IMG/VR virus record: IMGVR_UViG_3300032284_001828
Span: 1-29,087 of that record
Direction: 5' to 3' (one strand)
From: a virus
Length of the DNA stretch: 29,087 nucleotides
The notes under the pieces are model-generated. The model was not told where the DNA came from. It worked only from the letters and a program-made list of their open reading frames with translations, and did not search any database. The first letter of the stretch is position 1. Each line of letters begins with the position of its first letter. The position numbers were made by a program, and so were the translations under genes. This document shows positions 6,765-23,530 of the stretch, one piece after another.

Positions 6765-7919
6765 ATGGCTACACTAGATACAAAACTATCAGGAACACAA
6801 ACCGGCTCAATGGTAACAGAAAGCCTGGGCGCCCCGGGTCAAATTGCCTATGATGAGTCAGCATACCCTAGCACAGCAAACAAGCGCAAAGCAATTGAAG
6901 ACTATGTAAGATTGCGCCTTGGTGATGGGCTAGTAGATGTTGAACTAGATCCTATACACTACAAGGTGGCTATTGACCGTGCGCTGGGTCGTTATCGTCA
7001 ACGTGCTCAGCATGCAGAAGAAGAGAGCTTTGCATTCTTAGATCTTCTGCCCGAAACCCAAGAGTACATACTTCCACAAGAGATCATGACTGTACGTGCT
7101 ATATTCCGTCGAGGAATTGGTAGCGTAACAGGAACAACAGCCAGCCAATTTGAGCCTTTTGCATCAGGTTATCTAAACACCTACATGCTGGTAGCAGGCC
7201 GTGTTGGTGGTCTTACCAACTACGAACTGTTCACACAGTATCAGAAACTGGCCATGAACATGTTTGGTGGATTCATGAACTTTACATGGAATCCAGTTAC
7301 GAAAAAACTCACACTGGTTCGTAAAATACCCAACAGTGGATTCACATATCTACGCATGAGCAGTCTAAGCGCAAGCGGTATTAACGCAGGATCTACCATC
7401 ACCATTAACATGGATAATCCATGGGGTCCTCCGGCCTATAACGGTATTGTGGTCGGCGCACAGGTTGTTATTATCAACTGTAGCATAACCGGATACAACA
7501 ACAGCTATGTGGTACAGAGCGTTAGTGAAGATATGAAAACACTAACAGTAACAGCATTAACAGAACTTGGAGCAACCACAGTAACAGGCTCACAGTTGCA
7601 CCAGAGCAATATCTATAGCCCAACACCAAACGATGTAGCAGAAACTGTACTATTACAGATCTACAATACCAAACCAGACAGCATGTTGTTCAATGATATT
7701 CGTGTTTATACCTGGATACAAGATTACGCACTAGCGGTATGTAAAGACATGCTAGGCCAGGCACGTAGCAAGTTTGCACAAATAGCAGGACCACAAGGTG
7801 GAAGTAGTCTGAATGGTGCCGATCTTAAACAAGAAGCCAAGGCAGAAATGGATGCCCTAGAAGAAGAACTCAAGCGTTACTTTGATGGTAGCCAACCATT
7901 AACCTGGATTATGGGATAA
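6765..7919 (+). CDS. gp13: gp13-like neck protein
   Basis: 384 residues against 309 in T4. The N-terminal core (DYVRLRLGDGLVDVELDPIH, then IDRALGRYRQRAQHAEEESF) matches T4 gp13's [29 protein letters not shown]. The C-terminus (WIQDYALAVCKDMLGQARSK, then LKQEAKAEMDALEEEL and PLTWIMG) matches T4's WVKDYATALAKELNGQI...EEARLEKEALREEL. gp13 forms the neck ring with gp14 below the portal. Between about residues 205 and 290 there is a beta-rich insertion (ITINMDNPWGPPAYNGIVVG) not present in T4. The start follows AAGGATCC by a short spacing. It is the only neck gene on the plus strand here; gp14 and gp15 lie upstream on the minus strand. Confidence 0.88.
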   Translation: MATLDTKLSGTQTGSMVTESLGAPGQIAYDESAYPSTANKRKAIEDYVRLRLGDGLVDVELDPIHYKVAIDRALGRYRQRAQHAEEESFAFLDLLPETQEYILPQEIMTVRAIFRRGIGSVTGTTASQFEPFASGYLNTYMLVAGRVGGLTNYELFTQYQKLAMNMFGGFMNFTWNPVTKKLTLVRKIPNSGFTYLRMSSLSASGINAGSTITINMDNPWGPPAYNGIVVGAQVVIINCSITGYNNSYVVQSVSEDMKTLTVTALTELGATTVTGSQLHQSNIYSPTPNDVAETVLLQIYNTKPDSMLFNDIRVYTWIQDYALAVCKDMLGQARSKFAQIAGPQGGSSLNGADLKQEAKAEMDALEEELKRYFDGSQPLTWIMG

Positions 7920-7926
7920 GTACAAC

Positions 7927-8289
7927 ATGAAAATTATTGAAGTTATTAGTGAAGCAGGAAAACTACCCAAGAGTCATATCAGTGCAACTCCTGGCATGAA
8001 AAAACATCCTGGATTGGACAACAGCAGTCCTTACGCACCCTGGAGATTTGCCAGTATGTTTGTACCCAGCTCTCCCGACTTTGAACATGAGCCGCATAAA
8101 TTAGGTCCAAGTGGACAAGCACTGGTAACAGCGGCCTATAGCAAAGGTGACCATGAGATCATTGCCGCGGCAGAAAAAAGATTTGGCACCAAGAGTGTTA
8201 GCATGACTCCGGCTGGATCTAGCGAGCAAAGCGATACCAATAAAACAAGCCCAACAGCAAAACACAAAAAGAACAAATACGGTGTCTAA
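7927..8289 (+). CDS. Small putative head-associated protein with capsid-targeting-like N-terminus
   Basis: 120 residues. It opens MKIIEVISEAGK, which resembles the T4 capsid-targeting sequence (MKTYQEFIAEA) and contains ISE, fitting the gp21 prohead protease rule (Ile/Leu)-x-Glu. After that comes a Pro/Gly/His-rich segment (KSHISATPGMKKHPGLDNSS) and a short core (GQALVTAAYSKGDHEIIAAA), then a Lys/Ser/Thr-rich tail ending KHKKNKYGV. I recall similar small proteins next to gp13 in marine T4-like phages but no function. It starts 7 bases after gp13 and ends with TAAATA, so the stop codon overlaps a possible late promoter. Being packed in the head is inference from the N-terminus. Confidence 0.7.
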   Translation: MKIIEVISEAGKLPKSHISATPGMKKHPGLDNSSPYAPWRFASMFVPSSPDFEHEPHKLGPSGQALVTAAYSKGDHEIIAAAEKRFGTKSVSMTPAGSSEQSDTNKTSPTAKHKKNKYGV

Positions 8290-9414: not shown

Positions 9415-12400
9415 ATGGCAAGCCTAGTATCCCCAGGTCTGAGTATAACAGTAACAGACGAAACACAATATGTATCAACCGGTTTAGGTACCGTACCATT
9501 AGTTTTTGTAGCAACCGCTCAAGACAAAATGGGACCATCTGGATCAGCCGCAACAGGTACATCAAAAGCCAAGGCCGGACATCTCCAGGCATTTGGTAGC
9601 CAACGTGATCTAATCACTGCGTTTGGATATCCAACGTTCCAGCAAGATGCAGGCGGTGGTCCAGTTAACGGCGGTGAACTAAACGAGTATGGACTACAAG
9701 CCGCTTACAGCGCACTTGGTCTTGGAAGTAATATTTATATTGTTCGTGCAGACATTGACATGAACGAATTGCATGCTACAGCAGTACGCCCAGTAGGGGC
9801 AGTAGCCAATGGTACAGAATGGTTAGATCTATCCAGTAGCAAATTTGGTATTTTTGTATGGAACGCATCCACTCAAGCATACTCTGCTCAGACTCCATTG
9901 ATCATCACCAGCACAAGCCAGTGTTCAGCACCAGGCGGCGGGACTCCAGTATACACTCCATTGAGCTCAGTCGGTTCAATTGGTCAGTTTGCAGTTGTTG
10001 TTGCTGATGCTAACAATCCAGTATTTTACAAAACACCAGATAACATGTGGGTTCCAATTGGAACTACAGAATATCAACAGGTATGGCCAACTGTACAATC
10101 ATCTCTTGTATATGCCGGATCACCTGTTCCTGTAGGTACTACGGTCACTATTAATGCAACCACAGTAACAATCACAGGTGCAGGATCAAATGCAACATTG
10201 ACCGAAGTTGTTACCAGCATCAACAGCGCATTTGGTGCTAGTTTTGGTGACGGTATCCAGGCTGGTACAGATTCAACAGGCACACGTCTGGTTATCTATG
10301 CAGACAGCACAGCAATGAGCGATGGTACACACACTGACGGCAAAATTAATATTGCAACCAGCGCAGGTGCAACATCACTTGGATTGACTGGTGGATCTTA
10401 TAATTCTCCACTACTCAGCTTTGGTACATACACACAAGTTCCAACATTCGCATCAAGCGATTCAACACCAGCACCAACAGGTAGCTTGTGGATTAAAACC
10501 ACTGCGATTGGCGGTGGCGCAACCTGGGCAGTAAACAAATACAACAGCACCACTGGTGCATTTGTAGCTCAATCAGCACCAATTTATTCTAGTCGTGCCG
10601 CGGCACTATTTGGTATTGATTACTTCAACGGTGGCACAGGTATCAGCGTTGGATCAGTTTTTGTTGACTATTCATCAATCGCAAACTACCCAGGTACATT
10701 TAAAATTTGGAATCGCTATAAGAGTGGCATGACACAGATCACTGGCGCGGCTCTTGCAAGTGCAACACCATTCACAATTGGTGATACATTTACATTGGCA
10801 GTGACACAACCTGGTACAGCAACAATTACAGCATACCCATTGACCATTGCTTCCACTACAGCAAGCGGATTTGTAACATTAATATTAGGCGCAAACATCC
10901 AAAACGTTTCCGCAAGTATTTCTAATTCAGGCGCTATTGTACTTCAGCATGAAGCAGGTGGCGATTTGTATCTGATCAACACAAGCGGTGGTGGTCATAA
11001 TCCAATACTTAACGCTGGATTCTCAAGCAGTACCTCAGGAATCTTAGTTGAACTAGACACAGTAACAGCATATACCACAACCGGAACTCCAGTTAGTTTG
11101 ACCGGCACATTGGTTGCAGGCAACTGGTCTCCATTGAGCTATACATACAGCGCAACACAACCATATGTTGCTCCTGCAAACGGCACACACTGGTACTATT
11201 CAGATGTTATCGAAGCCGACATCATGATTTGTACTGGTAGCGGTTGGCAAGGTTACGGCACAGTTACCGCTGATGCACGTGGCTACAACCTAACACAAAC
11301 AGATCCAAATGGTCCAATCTTTACAGCAGATGTTGCACCTACATTGCAAACCACAGGTAGCGCAGTTGTTGCTGGCGACCTATGGGTTGATACAGGCGAC
11401 CTAGAAAACTATCCTAAGATCTATCGTTACAACGGTAGCACCTGGGTAGCAATTAATAACACAGATAAAGTTACACAAAACGGTATCGTGTTTGCTGATG
11501 CACGTTGGGATGCAAGTCTTGACGGATATGGCAACAGCGTTGGTGGTATCATTGATCCAGTAGCTGGTTCAATTCCAGTTATCAGCACAATGAAAACAAG
11601 TAACTATGTTGACCTAGATGCTCCTGCATACCAATTGTATCCACGTGGTACATTGCTATGGAACACTCGTCGTAACGGCTTTAATGTTAAGCAATATGTT
11701 GGTAATGCTTTCACTAGCACAGCTTATCCAAACGCCGCAACAACCGGAACACACCAAACTGGTACAATTCCAACATACAGTGGAACATGGCAAACAGTTA
11801 GCGGTGAAAATGATGACGGTACACCAGCAATGGGTCATTATGCTCAACGTGCAATGGTTATCAAAGCCTTGCGTTCAGCGATTGATTCCAGCACACAAAT
11901 CCGTGAAGATCAATATTCATTCCAATTGATTGCAACTCCTGGTTATCCAGAAGCTCTTGCAAACATGACAGCATTGAACAATGATCGTGTTAACACAGCG
12001 TTCATCGTTGGTGACACACCATTTGATTTGAAGCCAAACACAATTGATATCACTGATTGGAGCAACAACGTTGAAACAACAGCAGATATCTACACAGCTA
12101 TCTACTACCCAGCAGGTCAATCAAATGACTTGTTAGGCAACACCATTGTTGTTCCACCAAGCCATATGGCATTGCGTACATTTATCCACAGTGACAACTT
12201 GAGCTACCCATGGTTTGCTCCAGCTGGCGCACGTCGTGGCCTAGTAGATAACGCAACATCAGTTGGCTATGTTGATTATACAACCGGCCTGTTTAACAAG
12301 ATTGGTGTACAACATAGTCTACGTGACACATTGTACCAACTGCGTATCAACCCAATTACAGTACAACCTAACCTAGGTTTATGTGTATGGGGTCAAAAGA

Positions 12401-12735
12401 CACGTAGCCCAGTTGCACAAAGTACTGACCGTGTTAACGTATCACGTTTGGTAAACTACATCCGTACTGTTCTAGCAACAGTTGGTAATGGATTTATGTT
12501 TGAACCAAATGACACTATTACACGTAACCAGATCAAGAATGTTATCGAAGGTGTGTTTAACGACCTAGTGGCCAAACGTGGTATCTATGACTACTCTGTG
12601 GTTTGCGATGACACCAATAACACTCCTGATCGTATTTCACGTAATGAGTTGTACGTAGACGTAGCGATTGCTCCAGTAAGAGCAGTTGAATTCATCTACA
12701 TTCCAATTCGTTTGGTTAACCCAGGTCAGAAGTAA
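9415..12735 (+). CDS. gp18: Tail sheath protein gp18, unusually large
   Basis: 1106 residues against 659 in T4. The N-terminus (ASLVSPGLSITVTDETQYVS, then GTVPLVFVATAQDK) and the C-terminal part from about residue 800 (HYAQRAMVIKALRSAID, then FAPAGARRGLV, CVWGQKTRS, RVNVSRLVNYIRTVL and a final EFIYIPIRLVNPGQK) are the conserved contractile-sheath blocks. The sheath wraps the tube and shortens to drive it through the envelope. The extra length lies in the middle (about residues 130-790), a Thr/Ser/Gly-rich beta region facing outward in sheath structures. It contains segments like GDLWVDTGD...IYRYNGSTWV. The start has AAAGGA upstream. Confidence 0.95.
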   Translation: MASLVSPGLSITVTDETQYVSTGLGTVPLVFVATAQDKMGPSGSAATGTSKAKAGHLQAFGSQRDLITAFGYPTFQQDAGGGPVNGGELNEYGLQAAYSALGLGSNIYIVRADIDMNELHATAVRPVGAVANGTEWLDLSSSKFGIFVWNASTQAYSAQTPLIITSTSQCSAPGGGTPVYTPLSSVGSIGQFAVVVADANNPVFYKTPDNMWVPIGTTEYQQVWPTVQSSLVYAGSPVPVGTTVTINATTVTITGAGSNATLTEVVTSINSAFGASFGDGIQAGTDSTGTRLVIYADSTAMSDGTHTDGKINIATSAGATSLGLTGGSYNSPLLSFGTYTQVPTFASSDSTPAPTGSLWIKTTAIGGGATWAVNKYNSTTGAFVAQSAPIYSSRAAALFGIDYFNGGTGISVGSVFVDYSSIANYPGTFKIWNRYKSGMTQITGAALASATPFTIGDTFTLAVTQPGTATITAYPLTIASTTASGFVTLILGANIQNVSASISNSGAIVLQHEAGGDLYLINTSGGGHNPILNAGFSSSTSGILVELDTVTAYTTTGTPVSLTGTLVAGNWSPLSYTYSATQPYVAPANGTHWYYSDVIEADIMICTGSGWQGYGTVTADARGYNLTQTDPNGPIFTADVAPTLQTTGSAVVAGDLWVDTGDLENYPKIYRYNGSTWVAINNTDKVTQNGIVFADARWDASLDGYGNSVGGIIDPVAGSIPVISTMKTSNYVDLDAPAYQLYPRGTLLWNTRRNGFNVKQYVGNAFTSTAYPNAATTGTHQTGTIPTYSGTWQTVSGENDDGTPAMGHYAQRAMVIKALRSAIDSSTQIREDQYSFQLIATPGYPEALANMTALNNDRVNTAFIVGDTPFDLKPNTIDITDWSNNVETTADIYTAIYYPAGQSNDLLGNTIVVPPSHMALRTFIHSDNLSYPWFAPAGARRGLVDNATSVGYVDYTTGLFNKIGVQHSLRDTLYQLRINPITVQPNLGLCVWGQKTRSPVAQSTDRVNVSRLVNYIRTVLATVGNGFMFEPNDTITRNQIKNVIEGVFNDLVAKRGIYDYSVVCDDTNNTPDRISRNELYVDVAIAPVRAVEFIYIPIRLVNPGQK

Positions 12736-17104: not shown

Positions 17105-20100
17105 ATGACCAACCACAACAACATTTATAACATTCTTGGCAAACTAGATGCCTTGAACCCTAAGGAAGAACCCAAAGGTAACCTCCTTAAAGAAATTCAG
17201 CATCCTGCTAAGAAAGATGTGGTTTCACAACTGAACGATCGTTATGCAACATTCAAGCAACGTTTGAATGAAAGCCAAGTCAATGAACTAAGTCCTGCGT
17301 TGATGCAACGAGCGGCAAAAAAAGCAGGTGCCATGGTTAACAAGAGTTACCAAGATCGCGATTATAATGCCACAACTGATTATGCAAATCAACAAGATAG
17401 AATACAGCATGGCATGGACAAGAGAGCAGGCAAGAGTTCTACGTTTACTAGAAGTAACGATTACCTAAAAAATGAACCAGGTGCTAACACAGCCAAAGGA
17501 TCTCGTATGCCTGTTGGCATGGAAGAAGAACAAGTCAACGAACTAAGTCCTAAGACACTAGGTAGCTATGCAAAGAAAGCCGCAGTAGATGCCAAGTTCC
17601 TGGGACACCAGGCCGGCGCACAGCAAGGTGATGCAATGGCACATGCCAAGCATCCGGGTGACGGTGTCGAAGCAGGCATGGAACTGGACGACAAGGCACA
17701 CAAGCGTTTGCGTGGTGTACACAAAGCAGTTAATAAGTTGTCTGGCATTCCAGTTAAAGAAAATAGAGTAGATAGTCCTGTGTCAAGTGCTATCACACGC
17801 CGAATCCTGAATCAGCGTCATGACCTACTGAAGTATGGCCCGCAGGCAGTAATGGATGCGATTGACCAAGTTGCTGACTGGGTCGATCTTGGACCTGATG
17901 ACGAGATTGGTTCAAGCGATGTTAGCGCATGGGTTAGCCAGGTAGAACGCTATCTAAGATCCAGTGCCGGAGAAGGCATACAGTTCAAAGGTATTGATGT
18001 GGCGGAAGGCTCATTAAACGAATTTGCAGTATCCGGAGACAGCGGCGGCGATGATGATGATGATGAGGATGAATTCCCGCAGATGTTTGAAGCGCCATTT
18101 ACTGCTGTTATCAACGGTAAAAAACAAAGTGGCACAGTGATAATTTATCCTGGAGAAGTTACCTCGGCAGAATGGCATACCAAAGATGCAATCTATATCA
18201 AAACTGGCATGGATAATGTACACAACACAAGTGACTTTATTACGCATGCGGCAGAATATATTCAAGAAATCATTCGATTGAATGGCCGAGGTCACAATTA
18301 TGTAAAGCATCTAAAGCGTCGAGGTGGAGGTGTGGCGGAAGGCGAAACTATTCATACCAAGACAGGACTGATCCACAAGGGCACCTATGGCAGTGACTAT
18401 GACGAACAAGGCAGTGACGACGACTATGACGAGCACGGCAATAAAAAAACCAAGGCCGCCGGACGTCCTAAGAAAGACAAAGCACCAGAGCGTGTGACCG
18501 GCAAGGCATGGAAACACAAAGACGGCCGCCAGACAACAGAAAGTTTTGACGATGAAGAGGAAGAAGATCCAATGAGCTTCACACACGGTGCTAATATAAA
18601 TGGCACTAGTTTAGTGGGTCATATCCAGGCATCGTACGATCAATTGGTACAGGTATTCGGTGAGCCAGATATTGGACCAGATGACCGCAACCAAGACAAA
18701 GTAACCTGTGTATGGGAACTACAATTTGGTGATGGTACAGTTGCCACTATCTATGACTGGAAAGAAGGTGAGACTCCGATGGGTCCATACCGTTGGCATA
18801 TCGGCGGTCGTAATACCAATGCAGAACATATGATTCATAGTGCATTTGAAATGATGCACGAAGGCGAAACTATTCCTACCAAGACAGGACTGATACACAA
18901 AGGCACCTATGGTAGCGATTGGGAAGATCCAGAAGGCAAAGAAGATAGCGCCAGCAATGAACCTAAAAAATCTGGGCGTCCTAAGAAGGATAAAGCACCC
19001 GAGCGTGTGACTGGTAAAGCATGGAAGCACAAAGATGGCCGTGTAGCAGAGTCATTTAAAATTGATTCAATTGTTGAAGATACCATGGCAGAACTAGACA
19101 GCATCCTGCTTGCAGAAAAGGCAGTTAGCCAACAGCAACAAAAATTCATGGGCATGGTACATGCCATGCAGACTGGCCACAAGGTAAAGGGTGCAAGCTC
19201 TGAGCTCAAGAAAGTTGCAAAAGACATGGGCAAGAAAGATGCCGAAGACTTTGCTAGTACCAAGCATGCTGGGCTTCCAAAGAAGGTAAATGAAAGCATG
19301 GCATTTGAGTGTGAAGACCCAGGCGTTAAAGCCATTTGCCATCGTTATGGTAAAGAAGTCAATGACTTTACACAATCAGGTAACCTAGATCCAGACCTGT
19401 ATCATGCGCTACATGATCACTACTATGACTCAATGCCATCTGGCGTCAAGCGTGGATCAAACACCCAAGAGTGGGTAGGACATAAATTTAGCCAAGACAT
19501 GGGCATGGGACAACCAGCAACAGTTGAAGCTGATAGAGGCGACATGGCCGCAGTCATGGACGAATCAGGAGCATTCTATCCTGGACGCACAGTCTACTGG
19601 CGCGGCAAAGCAGGACATGTTGACCGTGTGGAAGGCAACAAGTGCTTTGTACATCTAGCATCAGGTGATATGGATGTATGGCCAACACGTGAATGTGATA
19701 CAGAAAAACAAAGTTTCATGAGCACACTAGGCAAAGACATTAAAGATATAGGACATGGTATGAAAGGCTTTTTAACAGGTGGCCCAGAAGAGCGTAGCGA
19801 ACTAGACGAACTTGCTAGACTAGCAGGACTTGGCAAACACGGTCACGAAGTAGATGAATGCACATATACAGCAGAAGGCGAACATTGCCCTGTACACGGT
19901 ATGAATGAATGTGGTATGGGTATGTATGAAGCCAAAGAAAAGAAAGCTGACAAAGATTATGACGGTGACGGAAAAATCGAATCAGGCAAAGATGAATATT
20001 TGGGTAGCAAAATCCGTGCGGCAAAGAAAGCCACATTCAAGGAGAGCGCAGGATCGATTGATTTTGATAAAGTGTTAGCGGCTATTGCGGCATTGTACGG

Positions 20101-20662
20101 TGATGACATTTGGGATAACGATGCTATGCAGGATTTAGCTAACGATTTAGAACAAGCTGGACCAACTGACCGAGAGTTAGATTTTATTATTGCCAGGGGC
20201 AAGTTGCCAAAGAGATTGGCTGGTATACAATTCTCAGCAGGTGATGATGTTCGATTTAATGAATCTAAGCCAGACTTCTTAGATGTTGACAAAGATGGCA
20301 ATAAGAAAGAGCCATTCAAGAAAGCAGTTAAGGACAAAGAAGAAGATGACAAGTTAGATGAAGCAATGAGTGAACTGCGCCGCCTAAGCGGAATGTCAAA
20401 GTCAACTCGTGAACATGTTGCTCATGCTATTCCTAACATGTATGCGTTTGAGAAAACAGTTACTGAAGAGTTTGCCAACGAACCAGACGAACAGTATGTT
20501 GATACAGACACTATTGTTAACCAAGGCAACGATCTAAATCGCAAGAAGTCACAGTACAGCGGTAAACCACGTGCGGGCGATAACCCAATGACCGGCGATG
20601 ATATCCAGATGGAAGCTAGACTAGCTCGTCTGTACAACAGTATTAAAGTAGCCAACAAATGA
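17105..20662 (+). CDS. Giant modular putative internal head protein with AT-hook repeats
   Basis: 1185 residues with no single recognisable family; it is a chain of short modules joined by acidic or Lys-rich linkers. In order: two QVNELSP helical modules (about 58 and 143), a helical DSPVSSAITRRIL module (223-285), a beta module (about 330-405), a GETIHTKTGLIHKGTYGSD/AT-hook module (412-475), a GTSLVGHIQASYDQLVQVFG module (about 500-585), a second AT-hook module (586-646), a helical AICHRYGKEVNDF module, a PGRTVYWRGKAGHVDRV module, DxDxDG loops near 951 and 1060, and a C-terminal RLxG motif. GRPKK at about 453 and 624 are AT-hook cores that bind AT-rich minor groove. Several (Leu)-x-Glu sites (LLKE30, LNE56, LNE306) fit prohead protease cleavage. 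Virion packaging is inferred. Confidence 0.75.
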   Translation: MTNHNNIYNILGKLDALNPKEEPKGNLLKEIQHPAKKDVVSQLNDRYATFKQRLNESQVNELSPALMQRAAKKAGAMVNKSYQDRDYNATTDYANQQDRIQHGMDKRAGKSSTFTRSNDYLKNEPGANTAKGSRMPVGMEEEQVNELSPKTLGSYAKKAAVDAKFLGHQAGAQQGDAMAHAKHPGDGVEAGMELDDKAHKRLRGVHKAVNKLSGIPVKENRVDSPVSSAITRRILNQRHDLLKYGPQAVMDAIDQVADWVDLGPDDEIGSSDVSAWVSQVERYLRSSAGEGIQFKGIDVAEGSLNEFAVSGDSGGDDDDDEDEFPQMFEAPFTAVINGKKQSGTVIIYPGEVTSAEWHTKDAIYIKTGMDNVHNTSDFITHAAEYIQEIIRLNGRGHNYVKHLKRRGGGVAEGETIHTKTGLIHKGTYGSDYDEQGSDDDYDEHGNKKTKAAGRPKKDKAPERVTGKAWKHKDGRQTTESFDDEEEEDPMSFTHGANINGTSLVGHIQASYDQLVQVFGEPDIGPDDRNQDKVTCVWELQFGDGTVATIYDWKEGETPMGPYRWHIGGRNTNAEHMIHSAFEMMHEGETIPTKTGLIHKGTYGSDWEDPEGKEDSASNEPKKSGRPKKDKAPERVTGKAWKHKDGRVAESFKIDSIVEDTMAELDSILLAEKAVSQQQQKFMGMVHAMQTGHKVKGASSELKKVAKDMGKKDAEDFASTKHAGLPKKVNESMAFECEDPGVKAICHRYGKEVNDFTQSGNLDPDLYHALHDHYYDSMPSGVKRGSNTQEWVGHKFSQDMGMGQPATVEADRGDMAAVMDESGAFYPGRTVYWRGKAGHVDRVEGNKCFVHLASGDMDVWPTRECDTEKQSFMSTLGKDIKDIGHGMKGFLTGGPEERSELDELARLAGLGKHGHEVDECTYTAEGEHCPVHGMNECGMGMYEAKEKKADKDYDGDGKIESGKDEYLGSKIRAAKKATFKESAGSIDFDKVLAAIAALYGDDIWDNDAMQDLANDLEQAGPTDRELDFIIARGKLPKRLAGIQFSAGDDVRFNESKPDFLDVDKDGNKKEPFKKAVKDKEEDDKLDEAMSELRRLSGMSKSTREHVAHAIPNMYAFEKTVTEEFANEPDEQYVDTDTIVNQGNDLNRKKSQYSGKPRAGDNPMTGDDIQMEARLARLYNSIKVANK
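18338..18529 (+). repeat. AT-hook module, copy 1
   Basis: Encodes about 64 residues: GETIHTKTGLIHKGTYGSD, an acidic linker, AGRPKKDKAPERVTGKAWKH and KDGR. The ends are nearly identical to copy 2 at 18860-19042, while the acidic linker differs in length and sequence. Confidence 0.85.
18860..19042 (+). repeat. AT-hook module, copy 2
   Basis: Encodes about 61 residues: GETIPTKTGLIHKGTYGSD, an acidic linker, SGRPKKDKAPERVTGKAWKH and KDGR. Synonymous differences from copy 1 show the repeat is maintained at protein level and is not a very recent DNA duplication. Confidence 0.85.
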
Positions 20663-21348: not shown

Positions 21349-21376
21349 TCATAAGTAATTAACCAAGGAGATTTCG

Positions 21377-22201
21377 ATGAAAAAACTATTAGCAATACTT
21401 GCCCTAGCCGTACTAAGCACACAGGCCAGCGCATGGACACAAAGACCCCCAGCACCAGTAGCACAATGTCAAGTACACGCACCATATGGCTTGCCAAATG
21501 TACAAGGCAACATACAGCCAATTTGCCGTGAAGCATATCTAGTTGGATATGATGCTCCTGCAAAACTACCACGTTTTGTTATGTGGACACTGACACCAGG
21601 TCATGCACTAGGTTGCGTGGCACGTTCAAATGCTTTCGTAGCTGACCAAAGTGTACCAGGTGGTGCAGTACCCGGTGACTATGCAGGCACAGGCTACGAC
21701 AAAGGACACATGGCACCAGATGGTGATCAGTCATGGGATCAACAAGTTGAGTTTGAATCATTCCTGATGACCAACATGAGCCCACAAGCTGGTAGTCTAA
21801 ACCGCGGCATCTGGAAACTATTAGAAACATCAGTACGTGGATGGGCCGCACAAGGTGGTCATAACTTCAACATCGTATCAGGCGGCATCTACACAGCACA
21901 GGATAAGAAGATTGGCGCAGGTGTGATTGTCCCACATGCATTCTACAAGATCGTTATCGATCAAAACACCGGACAGTATGCAGGCTGGATGTTTCCACAT
22001 GTGGCACCATATCCTAATCTAGGCAATGATCTAACCAAGTTCCGCATGCCAGTATCTCAGATTCAGACACAAGCTGGTGTACAGTTCCAGATTCCCAAGG
22101 GTGCAGTTGAACTACAACCAGGCAAAGAATGGCCAGTAGACTTTGGAGCACTAACCAATGCTAAACGCAAACTCTGCGGTGCAAACGCAACAGTTGATTG
22201 A
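21377..22201 (+). CDS. Secreted DNA/RNA non-specific endonuclease (Serratia nuclease/NUC1 family)
   Basis: 274 residues. Residues 1-19 are a Sec signal peptide (MKKLLAILALAVLSTQASA, cleavage after ASA). The mature part carries the family signature: YDKGHMAPDGD, with D108-K-G-H111 corresponding to DRGH and H111 as the general base. It is followed by FLMTNMSPQAGSLNRGIWKL and E150, matching SNxxPQxxxLNxGxWxxLE, with N142 as the Mg2+ ligand. All catalytic residues are present. The enzyme should cut double- and single-stranded DNA and RNA in the periplasm or outside the cell. The ribosome binding site AAGGAG is perfect. It is followed by an intrinsic terminator at 22232. Its place among virion genes is unexpected; possible roles are nucleotide salvage, exclusion of competing phage DNA, or lysate thinning. 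Confidence 0.92.
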   Translation: MKKLLAILALAVLSTQASAWTQRPPAPVAQCQVHAPYGLPNVQGNIQPICREAYLVGYDAPAKLPRFVMWTLTPGHALGCVARSNAFVADQSVPGGAVPGDYAGTGYDKGHMAPDGDQSWDQQVEFESFLMTNMSPQAGSLNRGIWKLLETSVRGWAAQGGHNFNIVSGGIYTAQDKKIGAGVIVPHAFYKIVIDQNTGQYAGWMFPHVAPYPNLGNDLTKFRMPVSQIQTQAGVQFQIPKGAVELQPGKEWPVDFGALTNAKRKLCGANATVD

Positions 22202-22231
22202 TCCAGAAGATAGACCTTTGTATATCTGGTT

Positions 22232-22254
22232 AAAGGAGCCTGTGGCTCCTTTTT
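22232..22254 (+). terminator. Intrinsic terminator after the nuclease gene
   Basis: AAAGGAGCC (22232-22240), loop TGT, GGCTCCTTT (22244-22252) and a continuing T-run: a perfect 9-bp stem. It lies 30 bases after the nuclease stop. The 5' arm looks like a Shine-Dalgarno sequence, but no well-spaced ATG follows. Confidence 0.9.
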
Positions 22255-22263
22255 CCACAACAG

Positions 22264-22292
22264 TTGACACCAACCAGTATCTAGTGTATCCT
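22264..22292 (+). promoter_or_regulatory. Sigma70-type promoter upstream of the 142-residue gene
   Basis: TTGACA at 22264-22269, 17 bases, TATCCT at 22287-22292 (4 of 6). It lies just after the terminator and 48 bases before the ATG at 22340. A promoter directly after a terminator, with no TAAATA element in this gap, suggests separate, perhaps earlier, expression. Confidence 0.45.
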
Positions 22293-22339
22293 GCTGATGA
22301 CGGTACTGATCGTCCTCTCAACCCATATGGACACCACTA

Positions 22340-22768
22340 ATGAAAATTAACGAACTCTTAACTGAATCAATTTCTGATGACTGGTTTAAAGACGGAAGTT
22401 TTAAAGCATTCAAACGAGCCAAGCCTATCAACTATGAGCTAGCCGACAGGCCAGGCACAGTGGACACACTAGAAGGCCCTGTCAAACATGATGCTGGTTT
22501 CTATATCATCACAGGACCCAAAGGTGAACGCTATCCAGTGCCACCGGCAAAGTTTAAAGAACTGTATGATGACAACGGTGATGGTACTGCTACCCCTAAA
22601 AAGATTATTAAACTGGCCAAGGTTGCTGACCATGATGGTGCAGTGGATACCAGCTGGGGTGAGAAACTAAATTACACAGCAGGCAATGATGTTATTGTAA
22701 GACATGGTGCAAACGACTATGGCGCAGTAAAGAAAGACATCTTTGCACAAACATATGAAACAGTATAG
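22340..22768 (+). CDS. Conserved hypothetical protein with PGxxD/DYGxV motifs
   Basis: 142 residues. N-terminus MKINELLTESISDDW has a (Leu)-x-Glu site (LTE) like the other putative head proteins of this block. The body has DRPGTVDTLEGPVKHDAGFY, then IITGPKGERYPVPPAKFKEL, and ends YTAGNDVIVRHGANDYGAVK with KDIFAQTYE. This is the layout of a widespread unassigned family in which PGDxxV, a repeat GE.yPv....F...Y and a terminal DYGxV...iF..TYE occur. No catalytic residues can be named. The ATG overlaps a possible upstream frame (TAATG) and has no clear ribosome binding site. It overlaps the next gene by 14 bases. Confidence 0.72.
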   Translation: MKINELLTESISDDWFKDGSFKAFKRAKPINYELADRPGTVDTLEGPVKHDAGFYIITGPKGERYPVPPAKFKELYDDNGDGTATPKKIIKLAKVADHDGAVDTSWGEKLNYTAGNDVIVRHGANDYGAVKKDIFAQTYETV

Positions 22769-23000
22769 ATTCACATCAACCTACAACTCAGACAGTGCTA
22801 TTCCTGATGCACATATAGATCCTGCAGACCCTGCATTTGCAATCGCCAATGGCGCAATTCCTAGAACAAATTTCATGGAACTACCTGCCTGGCAAAAAGA
22901 AAATCCACAAAATGAAAAAGCCCGGATAATGCGCGAACAAGGCATTAAACCGGGCACACCCGCATGGTTTGCACTATGGGGCACAGGCGGAGCTCGCTAG
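22755..23000 (+). CDS. Small hypothetical protein
   Basis: 81 residues from ATG 22755 (MKQYRFTSTYNSD). A TTG 12 bases upstream is a weaker start. Unrecognised. It contains DAHIDPADPAFAIANGAIPR and ELPAWQKENPQNEKARIMRE, then QGIKPGTPAWFALWGTGGAR: a Pro/Ala/Trp-rich sequence without membrane segment or Cys. The EARIMREQGIKPGTPEWF-like end looks conserved. It starts inside the preceding gene (14-base overlap, coupled translation) and its end overlaps the antisense HNH gene by 4 bases. The context groups it with the putative head-protein block. Confidence 0.6.
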   Translation: MKQYRFTSTYNSDSAIPDAHIDPADPAFAIANGAIPRTNFMELPAWQKENPQNEKARIMREQGIKPGTPAWFALWGTGGAR

Positions 23001-23530
23001 CCCTGGGCCATGCGCCTGTCTTCTATTCCTAGATATTGATACCAGCTAGGATGCTCGATATGTATAGGACGGTTCTTCCACTTGGCCACTAGGTTGTAGT
23101 AGTCTGGCTTGTAGGGCATGCGCATGGGCTTCCACAGCTTGGTACCTTTTTTGTGGTTGCAAGGCTTGCAGGCAGTTACACTATTTTCCCATGTGGTTTT
23201 ACCACCGTTTGCACGAGGAATCATGTGGTCAATGGTCAGCTCGTCACCAGGAAAGGTGTCTCCGCAGTATTGGCATTGATACAAGTCACGTAGGTACAAG
23301 TGAGCACGACTAAAACGAACTCCACGTTTGTTGTTAAAGTAGTTTTTAGTTACGGCCACAGCAGGATAATGAATTGTCAAGTTGGCGCTACGGGCAACAT
23401 GGTCCTCGTGACTCTCCAGCACAGTGATACGATCCAAGAACATCAACTTGATAGCATGTTGCCAGTTGATGATACTCAGCGGAAGTATACTGATAGGCTC
23501 GTAATTAGAGTTTAGTAATAGACAATTCAT
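22997..23530 (-). CDS. HNH endonuclease
   Basis: 177 residues. The HNH core is intact: CQYCG (C86, C89), LTIDHMIPRANGGKTTWENS (D101-H102, N116) and CKPCNHKKG (C121, C124, H126). C86/C89/C121/C124 should bind structural zinc and H102 should be the general base. The N-terminal part (LLLNSNYEPISILPLSIINW and QHAIKLMFLDRITVL) is that of the large bacterial and phage HNH family common in cyanobacteria and phages. It faces gp17 head to head with no gap. HNH proteins next to terminase help packaging cuts in some phages (HK97), so a packaging role is possible; a selfish nuclease is the alternative. Confidence 0.92.
   Translation of the reverse strand: MNCLLLNSNYEPISILPLSIINWQHAIKLMFLDRITVLESHEDHVARSANLTIHYPAVAVTKNYFNNKRGVRFSRAHLYLRDLYQCQYCGDTFPGDELTIDHMIPRANGGKTTWENSVTACKPCNHKKGTKLWKPMRMPYKPDYYNLVAKWKNRPIHIEHPSWYQYLGIEDRRMAQG

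What the first reader, a model, noticed from the sequence alone, without database searches (positions are those of the whole stretch)
21377..22201. Phage-encoded periplasmic or secreted DNA/RNA nuclease within the virion gene block
A full NUC1-family nuclease with intact catalytic residues and a clean signal peptide is unexpected in a T4-like phage. Exported before lysis, it could destroy DNA of superinfecting phages in the periplasm, supply nucleotides, or thin the lysate. A strong Shine-Dalgarno and its own terminator argue for high expression. The mix of signal peptide and neighbouring head proteins could also mean a rarely described anti-competitor system.
Basis: partly seen in the sequence, partly recalled or inferred. 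Interest (0 to 1): 0.7.

Follow-up and report, generated by a model that had tools for sequence, protein, structure and literature searches.

The report
Mobile late-expressed exported phage nuclease
This phage carries a gene for an exported DNA- and RNA-cutting enzyme that is shared, as a self-contained late-expressed unit, among many otherwise different large phages, probably to destroy stray or competing DNA outside the cell's inner membrane; phage enzymes of this type are already known, but I found no description of this mobile phage-only group in the papers I could search.

Summary
The ORF at 21377-22201 (274 aa) is a complete NUC1 / Endonuclease_NS protein (PF01223, E 6e-39). It has a Sec-type signal peptide, catalytic H111, N142 and E150, a strong Shine-Dalgarno and an intrinsic terminator, and sits among virion genes of a T4-like phage. 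The motif is DKGH, not the canonical DRGH.

"Unexpected" is only partly right: exported PF01223-type nucleases also occur in Klebsiella, Yersinia, Xanthomonas, Sinorhizobium, Flavobacterium and Campylobacter phages.

New here:
(1) It belongs to a phage-only clade with about 490 places in viral contigs; no cellular homologue above about 44% identity was found.
(2) It behaves as a moron: 40 distinct immediate gene contexts, contigs up to 367 kb, 67-77% identical between phages whose terminases are 28-36% identical, discordant with terminase phylogeny (AU p 6e-6), dN/dS about 0.06-0.11.
(3) 39 of 48 copies have a T4-type late-promoter motif just upstream (about 3 expected).

Best reading: a late, periplasmic nuclease that destroys incoming DNA of competitors, and debris at lysis. 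Family and signal peptide are well supported; the purpose is inferred, and barrier versus lysate clearing cannot be separated by sequence.

The parts
21350..21357 (+). T4-type late-promoter-like motif CATAAGTA (one-base variant of NATAAATA)
   Evidence: Motif NTAA[AG]TA at -45..-20 in 39 of 48 relatives, 3.1 expected from shuffles; the same motif precedes window virion genes 6765, 12820, 13549, 16474, 25145
21365..21370 (+). Shine-Dalgarno AAGGAG, 6 nt before the ATG
   Evidence: Sequence
21377..22201 (+). Exported NUC1 / Endonuclease_NS nuclease, 274 aa
   Evidence: PF01223 E 6.4e-39; PHROG 14168; fold Z 18-19.6
21377..21433 (+). Signal peptide, residues 1-19, predicted cleavage ASA|WTQR
   Evidence: AxA-type site before an invariant W in 60 of 61 relatives; 0 of 28 other window ORFs pass the signal-peptide rule
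21698..21709 (+). Catalytic motif D108-K109-G110-H111
   Evidence: H111 invariant; K in 58 and I in 3 of 61
21800..21826 (+). N142 (metal ligand) to E150 (catalytic)
   Evidence: Both invariant; spacing as in NucA
22232..22254 (+). Intrinsic terminator AAAGGAGCC-TGT-GGCTCCTTT-TT
   Evidence: -17.7 kcal/mol, z -4.7

Best explanation
A T4-like phage expresses, late in infection from its own late promoter, a Sec-exported NUC1-family nuclease that folds in the periplasm with disulfide bonds. There it accumulates away from the phage's own DNA and cuts DNA and RNA that reaches the periplasm, chiefly the DNA of later-arriving phages whose entry stalls, so that the infected cell is not shared. At lysis it is released and also degrades debris. 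The gene is a single-gene moron that phages pass to one another. Shown: family, catalytic residues, signal peptide by rule, late-promoter motif, terminator, mobility, purifying selection. Inferred: periplasmic location, enzymatic activity, disulfides, late transcription, and the anti-competitor purpose.
For: PF01223 match and fold. H/N/E invariant. Signal peptide in 60 of 61 relatives against 0 of 28 control ORFs. Four invariant cysteines in 61 of 61; the C31/C50 pair is kept in five of seven distant homologues from the phage collection. Late-promoter motif in 39 of 48 upstreams against 3.1 expected; a late gene fits neither host-DNA breakdown nor early nucleotide supply well. About 490 places in viral contigs, 40 immediate contexts, including orientation against its neighbours with the promoter motif kept. 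Nuclease 67-77% identical where terminase is 28-36%. At the same site in phages with 78-86% identical terminase the nuclease can be only 51-67% identical, and the concordant tree is rejected, p 6e-6. dN/dS 0.06-0.11. No partner or inhibitor gene recurs in all contexts. The PF01223-type nuclease of prophage CJIE4 is extracellular, degrades DNA, and such nucleases are reported to stop natural transformation (PMC4372405).
Against: T4-like phages carry their DNA through a tail tube, so a periplasmic nuclease reaches it only if entry stalls. Late expression leaves the first minutes unguarded. Release at lysis fits the same facts. The arginine of the motif is replaced by lysine (isoleucine in three relatives), which could alter activity. 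There are no experimental data on this clade. CJIE4 is a prophage and its nuclease is only about 25% identical.
Confidence: 0.45

Rival explanations
1. Lysate-clearing nuclease: made late, stored folded in the periplasm, and released at lysis to break down host DNA that would trap or bind progeny virions, or to loosen biofilm matrix.
For: Late-promoter motif. Signal peptide. In one context (L053, L054, L057) the gene directly follows a GH19 endolysin-like gene. The CJIE4 nuclease degrades extracellular DNA and biofilm (PMC4372405).
Against: Only one of the contexts examined is next to a lysis-like gene. Dilution in water would limit the benefit to the producer. It cannot be separated from the barrier role by sequence.
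Confidence: 0.25
2. Nutrient scavenging (auxiliary metabolic role): the exported nuclease degrades external nucleic acid to feed nucleotides or phosphate to phage replication.
For: In L002 and L022 the preceding gene is a 5'-deoxynucleotidase-like protein (NT5C).
Against: A late promoter is badly timed for supply. No uptake or phosphatase partner recurs.
Confidence: 0.12
3. It blocks natural transformation or plasmid entry into the infected cell, as reported for the CJIE4 nuclease.
For: Distant homologue with that phenotype (PMC4372405; PMC10893306).
Against: A lytic, late-stage cell gains little from this. CJIE4 is a prophage.
Confidence: 0.08
4. A virion-packaged or injected nuclease linked to the neighbouring head genes.
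For: Location in the window between head-related genes and terminase.
Against: It has a Sec signal peptide with an AxA|W site, and elsewhere the gene lies next to or near uvsX, DNA polymerase, glycosyltransferase-like and other genes.
Confidence: 0.05

Closest known systems
Klebsiella Alcyoneusvirus (RaK2, K64-1, Muenster) 'periplasmic DNA/RNA non-specific endonuclease'
   Same: Phage-encoded nuclease of this type with signal peptide, DKGH motif and the C31/C50 cysteine pair
   Different: About 33-35% identical over 59% of the length; lacks the C80/C267 pair; jumbo phages of Klebsiella
Yersinia phage GN1 / YerA41 DNA/RNA non-specific endonuclease
   Same: Exported nuclease of this type in a 145-kb phage; C31/C50 pair
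   Different: About 33-35% identical; near tail-fibre assembly genes; DRGH motif
Campylobacter prophage CJIE4 nuclease (CJE1441)
   Same: Phage-encoded exported non-specific nuclease; shown to degrade DNA, reported to stop natural transformation (PMC4372405)
   Different: About 25% identical; temperate element; groups elsewhere in the tree
Anabaena NucA and Serratia marcescens nuclease
   Same: Fold and His/Asn/Glu active site; exported enzymes (own knowledge)
   Different: Cellular enzymes, 20-22% identical in the structural alignment; Arg instead of Lys in the motif; NucA has an intracellular inhibitor NuiA, none is linked here

Membership tests
DNA/RNA non-specific endonuclease (PF01223, NUC1) | Profile match over the domain above the curated cut-off | tested here: met
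   134 bits against cut-off 23, profile positions 14-217 of 223
DNA/RNA non-specific endonuclease (PF01223, NUC1) | Fold of Serratia nuclease / EndoG | tested here: met
   Predicted model: VIA Z 18-19.6, rmsd 2.6-3.1 over 203-211 residues
DNA/RNA non-specific endonuclease (PF01223, NUC1) | Catalytic His, metal-binding Asn, catalytic Glu | tested here: met
   H111, N142, E150 invariant
DNA/RNA non-specific endonuclease (PF01223, NUC1) | Arginine in the D-R-G-H motif (common, not universal, so not treated as strictly defining) | tested here: not met
   K109 in 58 of 61, I in 3; phage-collection homologues have R, K or M
DNA/RNA non-specific endonuclease (PF01223, NUC1) | Metal-dependent, sequence-nonspecific nuclease activity | not testable with these tools
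   Needs purified protein
Sec-exported periplasmic nuclease | N-terminal signal peptide with AxA-type cleavage site | tested here: met
   Rule passed by 60 of 61 relatives, 0 of 28 control ORFs; SignalP not available
Sec-exported periplasmic nuclease | Location in periplasm or medium | not testable with these tools
   Needs fractionation
T4-type late gene | NTAAATA-type late promoter just upstream | tested here: met
   39 of 48 relatives with NTAA[AG]TA; the window has the one-base variant CATAAGTA
T4-type late gene | Late transcription during infection | not testable with these tools
   Needs an RNA time course
Phage moron | Accessory presence, own promoter and terminator, mobile between genomes | tested here: met
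   No match in 16 of 20 sampled records with related terminase, though these may be fragments; promoter motif and terminator; contexts and trees
Superinfection exclusion system | Infected cells exclude later phage DNA because of this gene | not testable with these tools
   Needs a superinfection assay with a catalytic mutant
Described anti-phage defence system (PADLOC) | Match to a described defence protein | tested here: not met
   No PADLOC model matched the nuclease

The most novel reading that the evidence does not exclude
The nuclease is a competition factor traded among unrelated large phages: a late periplasmic enzyme that destroys stalled superinfecting-phage DNA. By removing that DNA it may also cancel the periplasmic signal that is proposed to trigger lysis inhibition in T4-like phages, so that it both excludes rivals and sets lysis timing.
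Probability: 0.12. Interest if true: 0.8.

Novelty: new member of a known kind. Interest (0 to 1): 0.45.

Why it matters
Exported nucleases recur in large lytic phages but are usually just listed in annotations. Here one phage-only clade is shown to occur as a compact late-promoter / gene / terminator unit in phages whose terminases are hardly alike, under strong selection for function. That points to a shared benefit outside the cytoplasm and gives a specific, testable candidate for DNA-degrading superinfection exclusion or lysate clearing.

Tried and rejected
Host origin: the genome-contig scan found only bacterial relatives up to about 43% identity; a sample of 398 genomes of one phylum gave best hits of 35-37% over most of the protein, and 43% over one short stretch; a Geobacter genome gave 44% over 172 residues. 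Both are limited: the scan used two peptide patterns taken from the phage clade, and the second was a sample.

Linked inhibitor or partner: no neighbouring gene cluster recurs across all contexts. The small ORF 22158-22340 seemed to match widely, but its frame reads through the terminator sequence, which explains the matches.

Defence system: no PADLOC or NCBIfam hit for the nuclease.

Sigma-70 promoter scan: at chance level. The same scan missed the terminator, probably because of its short loop; folding shows it.

Literature searches for phage-exported nucleases and superinfection gave nothing direct. The classic finding that host endonuclease I degrades superinfecting T4 DNA in the periplasm is my own knowledge; I did not find it in the library.

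A short 46% match in L236 was not confirmed as an ORF.

Full report
WHAT IS THERE. The window ORF 21377-22201 (+) encodes 274 aa. Pfam PF01223 matches residues 44-238 at E 6.4e-39, PHROG 14168 'nuclease' matches at 7e-35, and solved relatives are NucA, EndoG, EXOG and Serratia nuclease. The AlphaFold2 model from 30 relatives has mean pLDDT 77.5 and pTM 0.81; the stretch just after the catalytic motif (residues 112-117) is one of its weak parts. It aligns with CPS-6/EndoG, Serratia nuclease and NucA at Z 18-19.6. The window is a 29,087-base virus record with T4-like genes: tail sheath, tail tube, terminase, a virion structural protein at the portal position, single-strand binding protein and UvsX.

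SEQUENCE FEATURES. The catalytic motif reads Y-D-K-G-H. H111, N142 and E150 are invariant in all 61 relatives and in 7 homologues from records of the phage collection, while position 109 is K (58) or I (3) in the clade and R, K or M in the others. The signal peptide is of Sec type with predicted cleavage A19|W20; 60 of 61 relatives pass a simple rule and 0 of 28 other window ORFs do. SignalP was not available. Cysteines 31, 50, 80 and 267 are invariant in the clade. The 31/50 pair is kept in five of the seven collection homologues; C80 is in none of them and C267 in one. Paired conservation is what disulfides of an exported protein would give; the bonds themselves are inferred. A Shine-Dalgarno and a terminator (22232-22254, z -4.7) frame the gene.

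LATE PROMOTER. Upstream regions of 48 distinct copies carry NTAA[AG]TA between -45 and -20 in 39 cases; shuffles give 3.1 (maximum 8), and the region -90 to -65 gives 3. The strict form NTAAATA is in 35 of 48 (1.7 expected). In the window the copy is CATAAGTA (21350-21357), a one-base variant, in the 28-base gap before the gene; window genes at 6765, 12820, 13549, 16474 and 25145 have the same motif at about the same distance. T4-type late promoters are TATAAATA (own knowledge). The motif is kept where the nuclease points against its neighbours (L032, L081). So the gene is most likely transcribed late, by its own promoter.

MOBILITY. A scan of viral contigs found 490 places that encode relatives (the best 80 were kept). 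In the first set of loci there are 40 distinct immediate contexts: near terminase, next to uvsX or near DNA polymerase, next to glycosyltransferase-like, GH19, 5'-nucleotidase-like and unknown genes. Contigs reach 367 kb. Among 16 contigs with a terminase, plus the window, terminase identity falls to 28% while the nuclease stays at 67% or more; for the 30 pairs with terminase under 40% the nuclease averages 72%. Conversely, at the window's own site, phages with terminase 78-86% identical can carry nucleases only 51-67% identical (L228, L233, L235, L239). Holding the window's terminase group together on the nuclease tree is rejected, p 6e-6 (the group was chosen after the identities were seen and is not itself a starred clade on the terminase tree, so this p is optimistic). 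Most terminase relatives show no nuclease at this site, and 16 of 20 sampled records had no match anywhere, though they may be fragments. dN/dS of 0.06-0.11 shows the gene is kept for function; the signal peptide changes faster than the mature part.

ORIGIN. The clade holds no bacterial sequence (one side of a branch, support 100). Bacterial relatives reach at most about 44%. The host is not known, and habitat was not verified.

HOW IT LIKELY WORKS. Shown: a nuclease of known fold with its active site, a signal peptide by rule, a late-promoter motif, and movement between phages. Inferred: it is exported by Sec and folds with disulfides outside the cytoplasm, so it would not harm phage DNA, which would explain why no inhibitor is linked. 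A late, exported nuclease could act on stalled DNA of superinfecting phages or on debris at lysis. I put the first ahead because the gene is traded between phages, as a competition gene would be, and because a distant phage-encoded relative, CJIE4 CJE1441, degrades external DNA and is tied to loss of DNA uptake (PMC4372405; PMC10893306). Neither point is decisive. Early nucleotide supply and host-DNA breakdown fit poorly with late timing and export. In T4, periplasmic DNA of superinfecting phage has been proposed as the signal for lysis inhibition (PMC6832632); a periplasmic nuclease could remove it. That is speculation, offered as the novel case.

KNOWN OR NEW. Exported nucleases of this type in phages are known and annotated. 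One phage-collection record (Acinetobacter phage MD-2021a) looks bacterial from its neighbours, kup and an aquaporin, and is not counted as a phage precedent. What I did not find described is the size and phage-only nature of this clade, its mobility and its late promoter. I file it as a new member of a known kind.

Noticed in passing
22997-23530 (-): An HNH endonuclease gene lies antisense just upstream of terminase and is kept (about 55-100% identical) in most terminase relatives; its HNH domain resembles those of IscB and PtuB, far below the IscB cut-off.
   Followed up: partly
22340-22768 (+): PGDYG-domain protein (PF14083) downstream of the nuclease; found in only one of the other nuclease loci.
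   Followed up: partly
17105-20662 (+): A 1185-aa protein in the head region with internally repeated stretches (for example KTGLIHKGTYGSD and RPKKDKAPERVTGKAWKHKDGR, each twice).
   Followed up: no
9415-12735 (+): Tail sheath of 1106 aa; a general sheath family (phrog_23) matches only from residue 668, so the N-terminal part looks like a large extension.
   Followed up: no
7927-8289 (+): A 120-aa protein without family match whose relatives occur in tandem copies upstream of the nuclease in several terminase-linked loci.
   Followed up: no
L250 (374-kb record, nuclease place outside the locus): A nuclease relative with one in-frame TAA within the matched stretch, possibly a decaying copy; only seen as a search row.
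   Followed up: no
L310:1-4489: The record named Acinetobacter phage MD-2021a has bacterial neighbours (kup, aqpZ, rhtB) around the nuclease and looks like host DNA.
   Followed up: no
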